Virus record (IMG/VR): IMGVR_UViG_3300023301_000055 | Span: 1 to 33,215 of that record | Reading direction: 5' to 3' (one strand) | DNA from: a virus | Length of the DNA: 33,215 nt | In this document: piece by piece, positions 25,078 to 32,898 of the stretch | Layout of the letters: each line of letters opens with the position of its first letter | Position numbering within the stretch: the stretch's first letter is position 1 | Program-made: the position numbers and the translations under genes | Notes under the pieces: model-generated | The model's input: the letters and a program-made list of their open reading frames with translations, nothing else | The model's database searches: none | What the model was told of the DNA's origin: nothing

Positions 25078-25212
25078 ATGAAACTAATACTAGGAGATAG
25101 CAAAATAAAACTAAAAGATTTACCTGAAAATTCGGTAGATAGTGTAGTTTTAGATGGAGAAATTTACATTGGACCGAAACAAAAGGAAATAATAGATAAA
25201 TTCTTTAAATAA
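25078..25212 (+). pseudogene. internally deleted DNA methyltransferase remnant (44 aa)
   Basis: The open frame starts M-K-L-I-L-G-D-S, then L-K-D-L-P-E-N-S-V-D-S-V-V-L-D. That is the standard opening of small N4/N6 DNA methyltransferases of the type G-D-x-x-x-x-L-x-x-L-P-x-N-S-V-D-x-I-V-T-D-P-P-Y. It then breaks exactly where D-P-P-Y should follow and continues G-E-I-Y-I-G-P-K-Q-K-E-I-I-D-K-F-F-K to a stop. The catalytic P-P-Y and the SAM-binding C-terminal half are missing. I infer an internal deletion that kept the frame and the stop. The stop abuts the helicase ATG, so the residual ORF may still serve for translational coupling. Confidence 0.6.
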
Positions 25213-26517
25213 ATGGACACATTAGAAAGATATGGTCACAGTTTTCAAACCAAAGCAATAACAGCATTAATATTTGATAAAAAGTTTTTAGATACACTTT
25301 CTGATATTGTATCACCTACACATTTTGAATCAGATGTAGATAAGTGGATAGTTGGCGAAATTATTGACCACCATTTACAATATAAAAAGCCACCAGACAT
25401 TGATGTATTCAAAGTAAAGGTTTCAGAGTTAACGAATCCTGTTTTAAAATCAAATGTGGTTTTACAACTTAAACAAGTATTCACTCAACTCGGAACAACA
25501 GATTTAAAATTCATTAAGGATGAATTTAAGTCATTTTGTATCAATCAGAATTTAAAACAGGTAATTTTAAAATCGGTTGATTTATTAAACGCAGGTAGTT
25601 ATGATAAAATAAAATCCCTGGTTGATGATGCGATGAAAGCTGGTGTTGATCTTGATTTAGGTCATGATTATCAACTTGATTTTGATAAACGGTTTTTAGA
25701 TGAAGATAGAATCGTTATACCTACTGGTTGGGGAGCGGTTGATGAACTGATGAACGGTGGATTGGGAGCAGGGGAACTTGCAGTAGTAGTTGCACCAAGT
25801 GGTGTAGGTAAGACTTGGTTACTAACTTGTATCGGTGCTAACGCTGTAAAAGAGGGTAAAAGTGTAGTACACTATTCAATGGAACTTTCAGAATATTATG
25901 TTGGGGCTAGGTATGATACTGTATTTACACATATACCAAGTTCGGAATTAAAAGATAAAAATGCCGAAGTAAAATCTAAAGTACAAAATCTAAAGGGAAA
26001 TCTATTGATAAAATATTTTCCACCAAAAGGGATTACAGTTGCGAAAATTCAACAACATATTGAACAACTAACTGCGGCAGGAAATAAACCAGATTTAATT
26101 ATTTTGGATTATGCTGATTTAGTGCTACCAAAAAACGGTGGTGGTGATTCTGCATATCAAGAGCAAGGTGGAGTTTATATTGAACTTCGTGGTATGGGTG
26201 GTGAATTACAAATGCCAATTTGGACAGCATCTCAGACCAATAGATGTTTTTCGTTGGATACTCCCGTTGAGACACCAGCTGGTAAAATTGCAATTGGTAA
26301 GATAAAAGAAAATGATGAAATCTTAACACACGATGGTTACAAAAAAGTAAGTCACGTATTTCCAGTTGAAACACAACCTGTATATGAAATCACATTAAAA
26401 AGCGGGAAAAAAGTAAAATGCTCATTGAGACATGAATTTCCTGTTAATTATGGTAAACTAAAATCACTAGAAAGTGGATTAAAGGTTGGTGATAAATTAT
26501 TTACAAAAAAATCATAA
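25213..26517 (+). CDS. gp41: replicative helicase (gp41/DnaB) N-terminal part fused to split-intein N half
   Basis: Residues 1-344 are the N-terminal domain plus most of the RecA-like motor of a DnaB-type helicase: Walker A A-P-S-G-V-G-K-T (Lys200), S-M-E-L-S-E for H1a, L-I-I-L-D-Y-A-D for Walker B, and the run W-T-A-S-Q-T-N-R ending at the H3/Q-x-N-R motif. At residue 345 the frame enters an intein, C-F-S-L-D-T-P-V-E-T-P-A-G. It continues through the block B region (L-K-S-G-K-K-V-K-C-S-L-R-H-E-F-P) and stops after G-L-K-V-G-D-K-L-F. The missing 105 residues of the helicase are encoded at 27607-28065. Together the exteins make about 449 aa, near T4 gp41 (475 aa). Confidence 0.93.
   Translation: MDTLERYGHSFQTKAITALIFDKKFLDTLSDIVSPTHFESDVDKWIVGEIIDHHLQYKKPPDIDVFKVKVSELTNPVLKSNVVLQLKQVFTQLGTTDLKFIKDEFKSFCINQNLKQVILKSVDLLNAGSYDKIKSLVDDAMKAGVDLDLGHDYQLDFDKRFLDEDRIVIPTGWGAVDELMNGGLGAGELAVVVAPSGVGKTWLLTCIGANAVKEGKSVVHYSMELSEYYVGARYDTVFTHIPSSELKDKNAEVKSKVQNLKGNLLIKYFPPKGITVAKIQQHIEQLTAAGNKPDLIILDYADLVLPKNGGGDSAYQEQGGVYIELRGMGGELQMPIWTASQTNRCFSLDTPVETPAGKIAIGKIKENDEILTHDGYKKVSHVFPVETQPVYEITLKSGKKVKCSLRHEFPVNYGKLKSLESGLKVGDKLFTKKS
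26245..26514 (+). other. split intein, N-terminal half (IntN, about 90 aa)
   Basis: The first residue is Cys1 directly after the helicase Q-T-N-R. Block A is C-F-S-L-D-T-P-V. Block B is represented by K-V-K-C-S-L-R-H (catalytic His present, with Cys-Ser-Leu in place of the usual Thr-x-x). The half ends with L-K-V-G-D-K-L-F-T-K-K-S and a stop. From memory it is close in pattern to the gp41-8 type of split intein found in metagenomic gp41 genes. Confidence 0.9.
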
Positions 26518-26553
26518 AAAGTTTGTGTATCCGTTCTGTTTTTATAAAAATCT

Positions 26554-26563
26554 TATATTTATA
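26554..26563 (+). promoter_or_regulatory. TATATTTATA late-type box of the homing endonuclease gene
   Basis: An exact copy of the box lies 13 bp upstream of the endonuclease ATG, in the gap after the IntN stop. All the other copies precede tail, late or unassigned large-protein genes, so the endonuclease appears to be expressed on the late schedule independently of the helicase. Confidence 0.6.
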
Positions 26564-26576
26564 ATAAAGAGATACT

Positions 26577-27620
26577 ATGGAATTATATTATAAAAACACG
26601 GAGCATATTTTAAGAGTAAAACCTTTTAATGAATTTGAAAACATAACGGATAACATTGTAGAACAATTAAATAAAATTGCAATACAATTTACTAAACGAG
26701 AAATTCAAAGTAAAGCTTTACAAGTCATATCATTAATTAAATATAATGTAGGTGAGGACTGGGTGACATTGATACATAATAGTAAACAGTTCAAACGGGA
26801 TAGTATAACATTAAATAGTTATATCGGTAGGTATGGTGATGTAGTAGGTACACAGTTACACACAGAACGTATTAACACATTTACGAAATCCGTGAGTAAA
26901 GATGCGTATGTTAAGAAACATGGCAAGAAAAAATGGCAAAAGTTATGTAAATCAAAGATTAGTTTTTCGGAACAACATTTTGTAGAAAAATACGGTGAAA
27001 CCATTGGCATGGTAAAATGGCAGGAAACATTAACCAAAAAAATAAAAACTCAAAAAGAGAATTTTAAGAATAAAAAATGGAAAAACGGACGAACACTCAC
27101 CGAATATCAGGATCGACATGGTATAGAAGATGGGTATAAACGATGGAAGTTACGAAATGATAAGCAACGATATAGATTATCTCGTGAATATTATATAGAT
27201 AAATTTGGATTAGAACGTGGTTCGGTTGAGTATAGATTATATGTGGAACAAAATATCAGAAACTTCCAGTCACCAGGTGGATATAGTAAAATATCACAGA
27301 GATTATTTAATTCCATATATAAACAATTAGATATTAAATATCAAGCAAAATGTAAATATGCAACAAATGCAGGAGAAGAGAGGTTTTTTATGAATAATGA
27401 TAAACTTATTTTAACTGATTTTAAATGTGGTAATAAAATTATAGAATTTGATGGTGATTATTGGCATATTCGTGATGAAACTAAACAAAAAGATAAAGTT
27501 AAACAAGAATTTTTAGAAAGTAAGGGGTATTTTGTTTTAAGAATAAAAGAATCAGAATACAATAAGAATAAAAATGAAGTTATAAACAAATGTATAAATT
27601 TTATAAATGAAACAACATAA
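26577..27620 (+). CDS. free-standing Vsr-like homing endonuclease within the split intein
   Basis: This 347-aa protein has two parts. Residues about 75-240 contain five degenerate repeats of about 27 residues built around [Y/H/F]-G-x3-G/K-x4-[W/Y], e.g. V-E-K-Y-G-E-T-I-G-M-V-K-W and Q-D-R-H-G-I-E-D-G-Y-K-R-W. These are probable DNA-binding units. Residues 265-347 form the nuclease: A-G-E-E-R-F-F, I-L-T-D-F-K, K-I-I-E-F-D-G-D-Y-W-H, then V-L-R-I-K-E-S-E-Y. This is a Vsr/very-short-patch-repair-like PD-(D/E)xK fold typical of endonucleases found with gp41 split inteins. It would cut intein-free helicase genes at the insertion site to spread the element. It overlaps the IntC start by 14 nt. Confidence 0.85.
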   Translation: MELYYKNTEHILRVKPFNEFENITDNIVEQLNKIAIQFTKREIQSKALQVISLIKYNVGEDWVTLIHNSKQFKRDSITLNSYIGRYGDVVGTQLHTERINTFTKSVSKDAYVKKHGKKKWQKLCKSKISFSEQHFVEKYGETIGMVKWQETLTKKIKTQKENFKNKKWKNGRTLTEYQDRHGIEDGYKRWKLRNDKQRYRLSREYYIDKFGLERGSVEYRLYVEQNIRNFQSPGGYSKISQRLFNSIYKQLDIKYQAKCKYATNAGEERFFMNNDKLILTDFKCGNKIIEFDGDYWHIRDETKQKDKVKQEFLESKGYFVLRIKESEYNKNKNEVINKCINFINETT

Positions 27621-27747
27621 TTTAAACCCGAAAGATTTTGAAATGGATGAAATCGTTTCAATTAAGTTAATCGGTGAACGAGAAACTGTAGATATAACAG
27701 TAGAGGATACACATATGTTTTATGCAAATGGAATATATAGCCATAAT
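27607..27747 (+). other. split intein, C-terminal half (IntC, 47 aa)
   Basis: It ends in F-Y-A-N-G-I-Y-S-H-N, with the His-Asn pair needed for Asn cyclisation, followed by extein Ser. All chemical residues for trans-splicing (Cys1, block B His, penultimate His, terminal Asn, Ser+1) are intact across the two halves. Confidence 0.9.
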
Positions 27748-28065
27748 TCAGGCATAGATTCAGAGGTAATAGAAGCAGATAAAATAGCAGATTCATATGC
27801 AAAAGTTATGAACGCTGATTTTATTATGAGTTGGAGTAGAAAGTCAAAAGATAAATTAAATAATACTGCAAGGGCGCATATAATGAAAAATAGATTCGGT
27901 CCTGATGGTATTACATTTCCATGTAAAATGGACACAAATACAGGCTTCGTTGAAGTATATGACGGCAATTCTGCCGATGGTATTTCTTCAAAAAATGATT
28001 CAGCACAAGGTGCGGTAGTTGAAAAGCAATTGTTGCACAAAAAGTATTTGGAGAATATGGGTTAA
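27607..28065 (+). CDS. gp41: split-intein C half fused to the helicase C-terminal part
   Basis: Residues 1-47 are IntC: a short lead, M-D-E-I-V-S-I-K-L-I-G-E-R-E-T-V-D-I-T-V (block F strand), D-T-H-M-F-Y-A-N-G-I, and the terminal S-H-N with penultimate His and final Asn. Residue 48 is Ser, the +1 nucleophile. The following 105 residues finish the DnaB/gp41 motor: G-I-D-S-E-V-I-E-A-D-K-I-A-D-S-Y, D-F-I-M-S-W-S-R-K, A-R-A-H-I-M-K-N-R-F-G and a C-terminal F-V-E-V-Y-D. Trans-splicing with the product at 25213 would restore a continuous helicase. The ATG lies in the end of the endonuclease gene, so translation is probably coupled to it. Confidence 0.92.
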   Translation: MKQHNLNPKDFEMDEIVSIKLIGERETVDITVEDTHMFYANGIYSHNSGIDSEVIEADKIADSYAKVMNADFIMSWSRKSKDKLNNTARAHIMKNRFGPDGITFPCKMDTNTGFVEVYDGNSADGISSKNDSAQGAVVEKQLLHKKYLENMG

Positions 28066-28090: not shown

Positions 28091-28597
28091 ATGAAAACAA
28101 TTTTAAAAGAATACATGAATGGTGTTGAAACTGATTTACAAAAGCGAATTAAGCAATTAAAAGTCGCAATTGAATGGGATAAATTATCAACTAAATTAAA
28201 ATCTGAATTAATTTCCAATGCGTTGGAAGCTGCAATGAGTAAAGTTATACCAAATTGTGAAGCCCCCACAGTAGATTCTAAATCAGATGTATATATAAAT
28301 GGAGTGGCGTTAGAAATAAAAACAACTTCAACAAGTTATACATGGCAAGGTGGTGAGTTTTCAAAAAGACCAGCGGATTATTTATTAGTTGGATATACTG
28401 ATGATGGTGTCGGTAATAATATTAAGTTATTTGTACTACATACCAAATTAAAAGAATCGGATTGGATATCTTCTAAATCCGATAATTACTATGCAACGAG
28501 TATTCAATTGAAATATATTTTAAAAAATAATAAATATACGGTATTAACTGGTAATATTCAACAAAAGCGAACACATCCTCATATGGTATGTGTATAA
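28091..28597 (+). CDS. PD-(D/E)xK restriction endonuclease-like protein
   Basis: The 168-aa protein contains S-K-S-D-V-Y-I-N-G-V-A-L-E-I-K-T-T, with Asp66 and Glu75-Ile-Lys77. That is the D-x(n)-E-x-K metal site of the PD-(D/E)xK nuclease fold. After it come G-G-E-F-S-K-R-P-A-D-Y-L-L-V and a late W-I-S-S-K...Y-Y-A-T-S-I-Q-L-K, a layout like that of small type II restriction enzymes. The N-terminal 60 residues are helical. It lies directly upstream of a helicase-methyltransferase gene that lacks an obvious PD-(D/E)xK domain, and both genes carry the same 15-bp leader. I infer it supplies the cleavage function of that system; it could alternatively act as a free-standing nuclease. Confidence 0.78.
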   Translation: MKTILKEYMNGVETDLQKRIKQLKVAIEWDKLSTKLKSELISNALEAAMSKVIPNCEAPTVDSKSDVYINGVALEIKTTSTSYTWQGGEFSKRPADYLLVGYTDDGVGNNIKLFVLHTKLKESDWISSKSDNYYATSIQLKYILKNNKYTVLTGNIQQKRTHPHMVCV

Positions 28598-28645: not shown

Positions 28646-31600
28646 ATGAGTAATATTTTAACAAAAGGAAAGCGTAAAAATAACTTCAAACCATTAAAGT
28701 TAGAATTAAAACTTCCACTTTGGATTTATGTTGGTGTCAATACGGATATCAACGGAAAGTGGTATTCTAAAATGGGACAGCATATTTGTGAAACCCGTGA
28801 AGAAGCTATCAAATATGCAATTAAAGAAACATTCGGAAAAACTACTGGATTGTTTAATAGAGAACAAATTGTTTATTGTGTAAATCATACTGAACATGCT
28901 AATACTCACAAAAAATTTAGAGAATTACAAAATTACGATAAATATGATGATTTTATCAGAACCGACTCACTTTTACCAAAATGGGCAGGTGTTGTTACAA
29001 ATGATATTGGGCAAAAATCCCAAGAAATCCACTTCCATGATTCAGATGATACATTAGAAAGTATAAGAACACGCTGGATTGCTGGTATGGAATCTATTTT
29101 AAATAAAGATATAGTTCAAGCTACCGATGTATATACGTCTCGACCATTCATTTCTGATAGTTTTGTTAAAATTACAAATAATAAACAACTTAACATACAC
29201 CAACATTTATTAGCAGGTTGTCCTGGTTCAGGAAAGGAAACGGGAACACTGAGTATTATTTTACATACACATGATTTGTATTATGATACAGATTTCAACG
29301 AAAATACAATACATGTATTAACTGCCACAATACCAAGTACGGCATTAGAATTAATAAAAGAATTAACTAATGTTAAAGGTATGGTAGATGGTCCAACTTA
29401 TTACGATTATACTCGATTTAAAGTATATGTTCTTAGTAAATTTGAAAAATCATATAAAAGTACATTAACTGGTGATTCTAAAGACTGGTTTAACAAATAT
29501 GTTGAAGTTATATCTGATATATCGGAAATACCACTACATCCGGATAAAAATGTCGTTCCTATTTTGATTGGTAGTTTTATTGATATGGGATTAAAAGCAA
29601 GTGGTGAAGTAAGTACATCCAATAAACTAAAAGACGTATATAGAGGACTTGAAGAACGAATTGGAATTCTTAGTATTGGTGAAGCACATCAATTTTTATC
29701 TAAAGAGGATAATAAAATTTGGAATCGTGTTAATAGTTTAAAAAGAAAATTTCTTCTATTGGTTACGGGAACTCCATATGATTATATTTTTAATGAGGAA
29801 CAGCAACTATATTTCCCAGCATCACAAACATCACTATTTACAGTAAATGATTTGTTAGATGAAAAGGCAAGTGGGAATCCAGTATTTCAAAATTATCCAA
29901 ATCCAAAATACTTTTCAATTAAATTTATTTTCAATGAAATTGAAAAGGAATTAAGAAAGTATGGAAAAATTGTTGATGATGATAAATTTACATGGAAGAA
30001 ACTACTAACATCGGTAAATGATGCTGGTGATTTCAAATATAAGTGGGCTATTATCAAAACATTCAAACGTTTGTTGGATGTAACAGTTAATCCAATGACA
30101 GGTAAGCCAGATGGATTGAGTATTGAGTCGGCTGATTTATGTGATGCAGCTAAAAGACATTTAATTTTCGCATTACCAAGTGGTAGTAAAGATTTTTCTG
30201 TAAATGTATATATTCCAAAGCTTGTTAAATTATTAGAAGATAACAACGCTCTTGGTAAATACCAACCACTTGTTGTTTATGATAAAACGGATTCATTAAG
30301 TACTATAAAAACAACAATCGAAGGGAATTTAACTCCAACGGTAACATTTACATGCAACCGATATTTAACAGGAACCGATATTCCAAGATGGGGAAGTGTT
30401 GTATTTTTAAGACCCATTGGTGATAGTATCAAATTATTCGAACAAATTAGAGGTCGAGTAATGAGAGCTCTTGTTGGGGGTGTAAAGCCTGATTGTGGTA
30501 TTTTTATTGGAGAATTGGATGAAGCAATGATATTGGAAGTAAAAGCACAATATCAATTATCATTAAATAAAGGATTAAATTTATCACATAAAGCAGTTTT
30601 AACTAAAACATTACAAAACTATTCATATTTCCATGAAAAAAATGGAGAATGGTCCGAAATAGAATTTCCCGATTTGGTTTCTCAAATTGAAGAAGCATCA
30701 AAAACAGGAACATACGGTGTACGTTGGTGTATTGATAACTTAAAAACACCTAAAGATTTTGATTATAAATTTAAAACCAAAAGTGGTAAAGTTGAAGTAA
30801 TTATTTCAGATAATGGAAACGCAGGTGGTAAAAATAAGAAAACAGTAGTTATTGGTAAGCAAACCTATTTGAAATTATTTGATAAAGAACAAGATAGAAT
30901 TAAAAACTATCGTGAAATGGTTAAGAGACACTTAGCTAGATTGCGTTTTTTAAGTTATATCAACGGATATCAAACAATCCAAGAAGTAATAGAAGTTGTT
31001 ACAGTTGCAATTGAAAATAACGATACTAATATAACCGATATGATTGGAATTGGTGTTGAATTTGTACCTACATATTTAGATGGTGGTCAATTAGATATTC
31101 AATATACAAATAGTTGGATTCACAAATTAAATACGGATGATATAACAATAAATGAGGTATTGGAATTATTGGGTTCGAAAGAATTACACGATGAAGAAAC
31201 TGCATTTTATGGAACACCGCAATGGTTATTTGAAGAAATGATTCAAAAATTGTTGGGAATTGAAACTATCGTTAATCCAACGGTATTAGACCCTTCTGCT
31301 GGTAGAGGTACATCATTAATTACCATGATTCAGTTGTATAAAAAACTTGGCATTGAAATTGATACTACTAATATTTATTATAACGATATTGATACTACTT
31401 TATATAAATTGTTTTTGAAATTAAACAAGCAATATAATTTAGGTATTCCTGAAAAAAATATATTTAATGATGATGCACTTGAACCATCAAATAAATTTAA
31501 AAAAATACTTATGAAAAAATTTGATGTAGTAGTGGGGAATCCACCTTACTCTAAAAAAGTCGGGCTGGTGAAAAATGAACCAATTTGGCATGAGTTTGTT

Positions 31601-32359
31601 AAAAAATCTTTGGAATTATGTAGTGAAGGTGGGTATATATCATTAATACATCCATCTGGTTGGAGAAATGTAAGTGGAAAATTTAAAGAAACCCAAAACG
31701 TAATAAAGAATAATAACTTAATATATCTTAACATAAATGACGTCCAAACAGGTAAACTATTATTTAATGTAACAACCCCATTTGACTGGTATATCTTACA
31801 GAAATCAATTTATAATGGTAAGACACTGATTAACTTTGATAATAATGTTAATAATATTGTTGATATATCACAAATGGAATATATACCAAATTCTAATATG
31901 GATAAGATCAATAAATTAATGGTGACCGAATTTGGTGACACTGTAAATGTTTTATATAGTAGAACTTCATATGGTTCTGATAAATCTAATATGAATCGTG
32001 AAAAAACTAATGAATTTAAGTATCCATGTGTATATAGTATTGTTGGTAATGATGAACCAATTCTTTTTTATTCAAATGTAAATGATAAAGGTCACTTTGC
32101 GATTCCAAAACTAATTTTAGGTAATGGCGCAAATCCAAAATGTTTTATAGATTATAATGGAGATTATGGATTAACTCAATTTGCGTTTGGTATTATAGAT
32201 GAACCAGAAAATTTAGAAAAAATAAAAATTGTTTTGGAGAGTGAAGAATTTCAAAAAATAAATTTATCTACTAAATTTGTTGCAACAGGAGGAAACCCAT
32301 TAGTATATCCAAGAATAATATCAACATTCAGAAAAGATTTTTGGAAGGAATTTATATAA
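28646..32359 (+). CDS. SF2 helicase-N6-adenine methyltransferase fusion (type ISP/type I-like RM protein)
   Basis: This 1237-aa protein is built in the order N-terminal domain (1-160), SF2 helicase (about 185-620), linker (620-840), gamma-class N6 methyltransferase (850-1000), target-recognition-like domain (1050-1237). Helicase motifs: G-C-P-G-S-G-K-E-T (Lys197), S-I-G-E-A-H (345-348), V-T-G-T-P (374-377), Q-I-R-G-R-V-M-R (600-607). Methyltransferase motifs: D-P-S-A-G-R-G-T-S (882-890) and N-P-P-Y (965-968). The order matches single-chain type ISP enzymes minus their nuclease, which may be the separate gene at 28091. The N-terminus (I-Y-V-G-V-N...Y-S-K-M-G-Q-H) weakly resembles a GIY-YIG/T5orf172 domain. 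Walker A has Glu after Lys and the DEAH box reads GEAH, so ATPase activity is uncertain. Confidence 0.88.
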   Translation: MSNILTKGKRKNNFKPLKLELKLPLWIYVGVNTDINGKWYSKMGQHICETREEAIKYAIKETFGKTTGLFNREQIVYCVNHTEHANTHKKFRELQNYDKYDDFIRTDSLLPKWAGVVTNDIGQKSQEIHFHDSDDTLESIRTRWIAGMESILNKDIVQATDVYTSRPFISDSFVKITNNKQLNIHQHLLAGCPGSGKETGTLSIILHTHDLYYDTDFNENTIHVLTATIPSTALELIKELTNVKGMVDGPTYYDYTRFKVYVLSKFEKSYKSTLTGDSKDWFNKYVEVISDISEIPLHPDKNVVPILIGSFIDMGLKASGEVSTSNKLKDVYRGLEERIGILSIGEAHQFLSKEDNKIWNRVNSLKRKFLLLVTGTPYDYIFNEEQQLYFPASQTSLFTVNDLLDEKASGNPVFQNYPNPKYFSIKFIFNEIEKELRKYGKIVDDDKFTWKKLLTSVNDAGDFKYKWAIIKTFKRLLDVTVNPMTGKPDGLSIESADLCDAAKRHLIFALPSGSKDFSVNVYIPKLVKLLEDNNALGKYQPLVVYDKTDSLSTIKTTIEGNLTPTVTFTCNRYLTGTDIPRWGSVVFLRPIGDSIKLFEQIRGRVMRALVGGVKPDCGIFIGELDEAMILEVKAQYQLSLNKGLNLSHKAVLTKTLQNYSYFHEKNGEWSEIEFPDLVSQIEEASKTGTYGVRWCIDNLKTPKDFDYKFKTKSGKVEVIISDNGNAGGKNKKTVVIGKQTYLKLFDKEQDRIKNYREMVKRHLARLRFLSYINGYQTIQEVIEVVTVAIENNDTNITDMIGIGVEFVPTYLDGGQLDIQYTNSWIHKLNTDDITINEVLELLGSKELHDEETAFYGTPQWLFEEMIQKLLGIETIVNPTVLDPSAGRGTSLITMIQLYKKLGIEIDTTNIYYNDIDTTLYKLFLKLNKQYNLGIPEKNIFNDDALEPSNKFKKILMKKFDVVVGNPPYSKKVGLVKNEPIWHEFVKKSLELCSEGGYISLIHPSGWRNVSGKFKETQNVIKNNNLIYLNINDVQTGKLLFNVTTPFDWYILQKSIYNGKTLINFDNNVNNIVDISQMEYIPNSNMDKINKLMVTEFGDTVNVLYSRTSYGSDKSNMNREKTNEFKYPCVYSIVGNDEPILFYSNVNDKGHFAIPKLILGNGANPKCFIDYNGDYGLTQFAFGIIDEPENLEKIKIVLESEEFQKINLSTKFVATGGNPLVYPRIISTFRKDFWKEFI

Positions 32360-32898
32360 TGATGAAAGAATATATAGAACATAGTAGAAATTTTGATTAC
32401 ATGAGTGGTATCCAACGTGATAAATTACGTGTAAAGGAAACCGCAGAAGTATTTACACCAACCTGGTTGGTACAACAAATGTTGGATAAATTAGAATCTG
32501 AAAATTCAGAACTCTTTACAAATCCAAATAAAACATTCTTAGACCCAAGCTGCGGTGACGGACAATTCCTTTCAGAAGTAATAATACGCAAGATGGAACG
32601 TAGTGGGTGCTCATTAGAACAGGCACTATCCACAACATACGGGGTTGAACTAATGGAAGATAACGTAAAGATGTGTAAAGAACGTTTAGCAGGACCGTTG
32701 CCAACAAAAGAAATATTAGATATTTTAGATAAAAATATAATATGTCATGATGCACTCACATACCATTATAGATTTGATGGTACACACGGTTCTGTAACGG
32801 CAGGGGCAATAAAATTAAATCAGTTTTTTAACCACGCTACTGGTTCATGGGAAACTAATTCAACAGAGAAAATATATGATAAAACACGAAAAATTTAG
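32359..32898 (+). CDS. short N6 methyltransferase-like protein without NPPY
   Basis: The 179-aa protein starts with a 1-nt overlap (TAATG) with the preceding stop. It has the motif X region E-V-F-T-P-T-W-L-V-Q-Q-M-L, motif I F-L-D-P-S-C-G-D-G-Q-F-L (Asp62 onward) and the motif II-like Y-G-V-E-L-M-E-D-N-V-K-M-C-K. It stops after I-I-C-H-D-A-L-T-Y before any N-P-P-Y, so the SAM-binding half is present and the catalytic loop is absent. A TTG 18 nt upstream is in frame, but the coupled ATG is preferred. It could be a truncated methyltransferase, a SAM-binding accessory subunit, or one half whose partner lies to the right. Confidence 0.75.
   Translation: MMKEYIEHSRNFDYMSGIQRDKLRVKETAEVFTPTWLVQQMLDKLESENSELFTNPNKTFLDPSCGDGQFLSEVIIRKMERSGCSLEQALSTTYGVELMEDNVKMCKERLAGPLPTKEILDILDKNIICHDALTYHYRFDGTHGSVTAGAIKLNQFFNHATGSWETNSTEKIYDKTRKI

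What the first reader, a model, noticed from the sequence alone, without database searches (positions are those of the whole stretch)
25213..28065. Replicative helicase gene fractured by a split intein with a free-standing homing endonuclease between the halves
The gp41/DnaB coding sequence stops after a complete IntN half and restarts with a complete IntC half 1.1 kb later, with an independent Vsr-like endonuclease gene between. All splicing residues are present (Cys1, block B His, terminal His-Asn, Ser+1), and the joined exteins make a full helicase of about 449 aa. An essential enzyme would depend on trans-splicing. The pattern corresponds to the 'fractured gene' class known mainly from metagenomes; a complete genomic context with promoter boxes and the nearby restriction genes is valuable. 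IntN block B reads C-S-L-R-H, unlike the usual T-x-x-H.
Basis: partly seen in the sequence, partly recalled or inferred. Interest (0 to 1): 0.8.

Follow-up and report, generated by a model that had tools for sequence, protein, structure and literature searches.

The report
Phage helicase split by trans-splicing intein
In this uncultured tailed phage the only replicative helicase gene found is broken in two by a selfish protein-splicing element carrying its own DNA-cutting gene, so the working enzyme must apparently be stitched from two proteins; this is a new member of a class described in 2009, although several close relatives have the same helicase broken twice.

Summary
ExtN-IntN (25213-26517), an endonuclease ORF (26577-27620) and IntC-ExtC (27607-28065) form a fractured DnaB/gp41-type helicase; the joined exteins give 449 aa. 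The closest relative, L082 (sister in the helicase tree), has an intact, intein-free helicase of exactly 449 aa. Cys1, block-B His, His-Asn and Ser+1 are present. The intein resembles gp41-1 (PDB 6QAZ), and the endonuclease domain resembles I-Bth0305I (3R3P, Vsr-like/EDxHD family). This is a known kind, the 'fractured genes' of Dassa et al. 2009. Block B CSLRH is not unusual: gp41-1 has CSEEH. The window is a 33-kb linear fragment, not a complete genome. Promoter-like matches are at chance level.

New here: (1) the H4-motif site is fractured in 33 distinct helicase lineages, scattered among intact ones (11 label changes on the tree, at least 8 forced), with Cys1, HN and Ser+1 in 33 of 33; (2) in 7 of these the gene is fractured again at the P-loop, giving three pieces; (3) endonuclease-deleted alleles stay split, one in an otherwise identical phage; (4) the IntC start codon lies inside the 3' end of the endonuclease gene in 23 of 28 lineages. 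Trans-splicing and homing are inferred, not shown.

The parts
25213..26244 (+). ExtN: N-terminal 344 aa of a DnaB/gp41-type replicative helicase, with Walker A (PSGVGKT) intact, ending at motif H4 ...TASQTNR
   Evidence: PHROG 19 E=3.7e-60; Pfam DnaB_C E=8.4e-16; 69% identical to intact L082
26245..26517 (+). IntN half of a class-1-type split intein (90 aa, Cys1, block B CSLRH), ending in TAA
   Evidence: PDB 6QAZ gp41-1 intein E=1e-20 for IntN+IntC; Pfam Intein_splicing E=3e-5
26518..26576 (+). 59-nt leader between IntN and the endonuclease, conserved in L002, L003 and L007; possible control element, function untested
   Evidence: alignment A4; no excess of sigma-70-like matches in the region
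26577..27620 (+). Free-standing homing-endonuclease-like gene, 347 aa: helical N-terminal part with tandem [YF]xxKYGxxxGxxxW-like units, then a C-terminal Vsr/EDxHD nuclease domain
   Evidence: 3R3P E=6e-4 by sequence; 3R3P best Foldseek hit, probability 1.00; DUF559 E=1.2e-7; AF2 pLDDT 85
27351..27608 (+). Nuclease domain of the endonuclease, with conserved E267, D281, H297 and D306
   Evidence: alignment A1 of 19 homologues: D281, H297, D306 invariant, E267 at least 90%
27607..27747 (+). IntC half of the split intein (47 aa, ends ...YSHN); its ATG lies inside the 3' end of the endonuclease gene (14-nt overlap)
   Evidence: 94% identical in L002 and L003
27748..28065 (+). ExtC: C-terminal 105 aa of the helicase, beginning with Ser+1
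   Evidence: PHROG 19 E=1e-6 for the ORF, residues 51-129; aligns with L082 without a gap

Best explanation
This is a mobile 'fractured gene' element at DnaB intein site a (motif H4, DNA-binding loop). It consists of a gp41-type split intein with a Vsr-like (EDxHD) homing endonuclease gene between the halves. ExtN-IntN and IntC-ExtC are translated separately, the intein halves associate, and class-1 trans-splicing (Cys1, penultimate His/terminal Asn, Ser+1) joins TASQTNR to SGIDS to give the 449-aa helicase. The endonuclease is thought to cut the uninterrupted SQTNR|S coding site of related phages in mixed infections, so that repair copies IntN, endonuclease and IntC as one unit. Shown here: anatomy, conserved residues, intein-free sister allele, scattered distribution, purifying selection, endonuclease-loss alleles. 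Inferred: splicing activity, cleavage specificity, homing.
For: Intact 449-aa helicase in sister phage L082 (window and L082 are sisters, support 98). Same element at the same residue in 33 distinct lineages, all 33 with Cys1, HN and Ser+1. The fractured/intact label needs 11 changes on the helicase tree, at least 8 forced by starred branches. Intein similarity to gp41-1, E=1e-20. Endonuclease similarity to I-Bth0305I by sequence and fold. dN/dS about 0.05-0.3 for IntN, endonuclease and IntC. Fourfold-site identity of window and L003 is 60% in the element against 35% in the flanks, p=1.7e-4. Group I intron excluded at Rfam thresholds. Only one DnaB in each related record.
Against: No splicing or cleavage assay. 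The element-versus-flank signal is strong only for the window against L003 (p=1.7e-4 with the neighbouring exonuclease gene included, 0.0022 without it) and weak for L002 (0.034 / 0.055) and L086 (0.058). It is absent against L091 and more distant relatives, and 28 pairs were compared. Record incompleteness leaves room for a second helicase.
Confidence: 0.9

Rival explanations
1. The split halves do not splice: the helicase is a decaying pseudogene or works by non-covalent association of the two fragments.
For: No biochemical data; endonuclease remnants in some relatives show that parts of these loci do decay (L056, L064, L091).
Against: Cys1, HN and Ser+1 kept in 33 of 33 lineages; strong purifying selection on IntN and IntC; helicase motifs intact and co-linear with intact L082; the intein halves stay intact even where the endonuclease is deleted.
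Confidence: 0.05
2. The fracture is ancestral and vertically inherited in this clade; L082 and other intact alleles are losses, and the endonuclease is no longer active.
For: Tree changes cannot tell gain from loss; most fourfold-site comparisons among other fractured relatives show no element-versus-flank difference.
Against: The window's element is closer to L002, L003 and L086 than its flanks are; endonuclease dN/dS is about 0.2 with the catalytic residues kept; precise loss of a split intein from an essential gene without a donor copy is hard, so repeated losses are less likely (general knowledge).
Confidence: 0.2
3. Group I intron, programmed frameshift or sequencing/assembly error rather than a split intein.
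For: Free-standing HEGs also occur in introns; the 3' end of IntN has a run of A.
Against: No Rfam match; both halves carry complete intein motifs; same structure in independent contigs; IntN and IntC are separated by a 1.1-kb gene in another frame.
Confidence: 0.01

Closest known systems
Fractured genes with gp41-type split inteins (Dassa et al. 2009, Nucleic Acids Res 37:2560; full text not held, known from citations and memory)
   Same: Phage replication gene broken by a split intein with a free-standing Vsr-like endonuclease gene between the halves.
   Different: Here with a matched intact sister allele, within-population loss of the endonuclease, relatives fractured at two sites, and endonuclease/IntC overlap counted across lineages.
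gp41-1 split intein (PDB 6QAZ)
   Same: Homologous over nearly the whole length (E=1e-20), C-S-x-x-H block B, HN end.
   Different: IntC is longer (47 aa) with a divergent N-terminus. From memory the insertion site corresponds to gp41-8 (NR|S) rather than gp41-1; this was not tested.
M. smegmatis DnaB inteins DnaBi2 (site a, H4) and DnaBi1 (site b, P-loop) (PMC6195587)
   Same: Helicase interrupted in the same two motifs; site a class 1 with Cys1.
   Different: Mycobacterial inteins are contiguous; those here are split, with separate endonuclease genes.
Shigella phage ESh36 gp41 (ON528746)
   Same: Cultured T4-type phage with fractured gp41: IntN end, 335-aa endonuclease-like ORF, IntC start.
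   Different: Different insertion point (SDIAE|SAGLP); annotated only as primase/helicase and hypothetical protein.
I-Bth0305I (PDB 3R3P), EDxHD homing endonuclease
   Same: C-terminal nuclease domain by sequence and fold.
   Different: I-Bth0305I is a group I intron endonuclease (PMC3943268); this one is free-standing in a split intein with an array of helical units.

Membership tests
Fractured gene (split intein plus free-standing endonuclease) | Conserved enzyme gene broken into two ORFs, each fused to one intein half | tested here: met
Fractured gene (split intein plus free-standing endonuclease) | Endonuclease gene as a separate ORF between the halves | tested here: met
Fractured gene (split intein plus free-standing endonuclease) | Trans-splicing restores the host protein | not testable with these tools
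   Cys1, HN and Ser+1 present in 33/33 lineages; no assay
gp41-type class 1 split intein | Cys1, block B His, penultimate His/terminal Asn, Ser/Thr/Cys+1, similarity to a solved intein | tested here: met
gp41-type class 1 split intein | Same insertion point as gp41-8 (NR|S) | not tested
   gp41-8 sequence not held; recalled from memory only
EDxHD (Vsr-like) homing endonuclease | Vsr-like catalytic domain with conserved E, D, H, D | tested here: met
   3R3P by sequence and fold; E267 D281 H297 D306 conserved; that these four are the EDxHD residues is inferred
EDxHD (Vsr-like) homing endonuclease | Cleaves the intein-free allele and drives its own transfer | tested here: inconclusive
   scattered distribution and partial synonymous-site signal; no cleavage assay
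Contiguous intein with nested endonuclease | One open reading frame through extein, intein and endonuclease | tested here: not met
   stop after IntN, endonuclease in another frame, new start for IntC
Group I intron | Catalytic intron RNA around the insertion | tested here: not met
   no Rfam match in the window

The most novel reading that the evidence does not exclude
Split inteins have colonised both DnaB hot spots (P-loop and H4) of one phage helicase family, so that some phages must assemble their replicative helicase from three polypeptides by tandem trans-splicing with two different split inteins; and because the IntC start codon lies inside the endonuclease gene, translation of the essential C-terminal half is coupled to the homing endonuclease, which ties the phage to the selfish element.
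Probability: 0.25. Interest if true: 0.65.

Novelty: new member of a known kind. Interest (0 to 1): 0.42.

Why it matters
It adds a well-bracketed case to a class known mainly from metagenome data: a fractured allele, an intact sister allele of equal length, and alleles of relatives that lost the endonuclease but stayed split. Together these look like the stages of a homing cycle acting on a split intein. Relatives with a three-piece helicase would be natural examples of tandem trans-splicing and a source of new, possibly orthogonal split inteins. None of it has been shown biochemically.

Tried and rejected
Helicase protein scan with a single sequence found only L082; an alignment query was needed. 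Group I intron and other structured RNA: none in Rfam. Promoter boxes: no excess over shuffles, and the leader motif TATTTATAATAAAG is not enriched in the window (32 matches, 27.8 expected). Host assignment through genome contigs: only distant nuclease-domain matches. The 168-aa ORF downstream has no relatives in viral contigs, so no structure was predicted. Claim that block B is unusual: rejected. The Dassa 2009 full text is not held; the literature searches made here found no description of a doubly fractured helicase, but most subscription papers are missing. Multiply interrupted phage nrd genes are described (PMC3653736).

Full report
Observation. The window is a 33,215-bp linear virus record of a contractile-tailed phage (tail sheath, tail tube and baseplate hub) with a replication block: SSB, RecA-like protein, 5'-3' exonuclease, helicase. 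The helicase lies in two ORFs. ExtN-IntN is 25213-26517 and IntC-ExtC is 27607-28065, with a 347-aa ORF at 26577-27620 between them. The intein boundaries are SQTNR|CFSLD and YSHN|SGIDS. Joined exteins are 449 aa. The best extein relative, L082, has an uninterrupted helicase of exactly 449 aa that reads SQTNRSAIDS across the site.

Intein. Cys1, HN and Ser+1 are present in all 33 distinct lineages fractured at this site. The site corresponds to DnaB insertion site a, the H4 DNA-binding loop; site b is the P-loop (PMC6195587). The correspondence rests on the motif, not on an alignment with the mycobacterial protein.

Endonuclease. The C-terminal domain matches the catalytic domain of I-Bth0305I by sequence (3R3P, E=6e-4), and 3R3P is the best Foldseek match of the model (probability 1.00, although E=0.03 for the whole multi-domain model). 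E267, D281, H297 and D306, which would fit an EDxHD motif, are conserved among 19 homologues. The N-terminal part is an array of helical units (AF2 pLDDT 85, pTM 0.37).

Distribution. Across 183 loci (115 clusters at 95% amino-acid identity), 109 representatives gave a helicase tree. Of these, 33 are fractured at H4 and 76 are intact there. The label needs 11 changes, at least 8 forced by starred branches. The window and intact L082 are sisters (98). Seven lineages are fractured at both H4 and the P-loop (L002, L003/L084, L007/L089, L064, L091, L094, L096/L098), and seven carry a contiguous intein at the P-loop plus a fracture at H4. L083 (Shigella phage ESh36) shows a fractured gp41 at another point in a cultured T4-type phage.

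Mobility and decay. Synonymous divergence between the window and L002/L003 is lower in IntN, endonuclease and IntC (dS 0.5-1.0) than in the flanking exteins (about 2 or more, or saturated). At fourfold sites the contrast is 60% against 35% for L003 (p=1.7e-4) and 64% against 49% for L002 (p=0.034) when the exonuclease gene is included; without it p=0.0022 and 0.055. Composition explains part of the level but not the contrast. It is absent against L091 and more distant relatives, so it supports, without proving, a recent transfer into this lineage. L089 carries the same exteins and intein halves as L086 (100% amino-acid identity over the shared parts) but lacks the endonuclease; the deletion lies between TTACAAAAAA repeats, and the intein remains split. 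L056 has lost most of the endonuclease present in L039, and L091 and L064 keep only remnants. In 23 of 28 lineages with an endonuclease ORF the IntC ATG lies inside that ORF, most often by 8 or 14 nt. This may couple translation of the helicase's C-terminal half to the endonuclease; no test was possible.

Dependence on splicing. One DnaB-type match was found in the window and one in each of 13 related records, so no spare helicase was seen, within incomplete records.

Verdict. It is a new member of a known kind. The surrounding comparative picture (intact sister, loss alleles, double fractures, overlapping reading frames) is the part a specialist might find fresh. Splicing, cleavage and homing remain to be tested.

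Noticed in passing
L002:2102-6486; L003:2090-6537; also L007, L064, L091, L094, L098: Helicase fractured twice (P-loop GVGK|T and H4 SQTNR|S), giving three polypeptides; where checked, the middle one carries IntC of one split intein and IntN of another.
   Followed up: partly
L093, L095, L120, L126 against L115, L121, L125: At the P-loop, contiguous mini-inteins of 187-193 aa look homologous to atypically split ones (short IntN, about 136-aa IntC). L120/L126 lie inside a clade of split forms, suggesting either re-fusion of a split intein or repeated fracturing.
   Followed up: partly
L089 against L086; L056 against L039: Endonuclease presence/absence among otherwise identical or near-identical helicases; the intein stays split after loss.
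   Followed up: yes
L053:2375-6642: Ribonucleotide-reductase-like gene that appears fractured twice by split inteins; a related endonuclease lies between two of the halves.
   Followed up: no
window 25078-25212: 44-aa ORF that looks like the joined ends of an internally deleted DNA methyltransferase; compare the start of L002:6490-7398.
   Followed up: no
window 28646-32359 and 32341-32898: 1237-aa helicase plus N6-adenine methyltransferase fusion followed by a methyltransferase-like ORF, possibly a phage modification or type IIG-like system.
   Followed up: no
window 28091-28597: 168-aa ORF with no Pfam match at E<=0.01 and no relatives in viral contigs; DVYINGVALEIK could be a PD-(D/E)xK nuclease motif (by eye).
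   Followed up: partly
window 26811-27266 and homologues in alignment A1: Tandem helical units in the endonuclease whose number differs between homologues at the same target site (347 to about 418 aa); possible modular DNA-reading array.
   Followed up: no
window 26518-26576: Leader before the endonuclease conserved in L002, L003 and L007 but not a recognisable sigma-70 promoter.
   Followed up: partly
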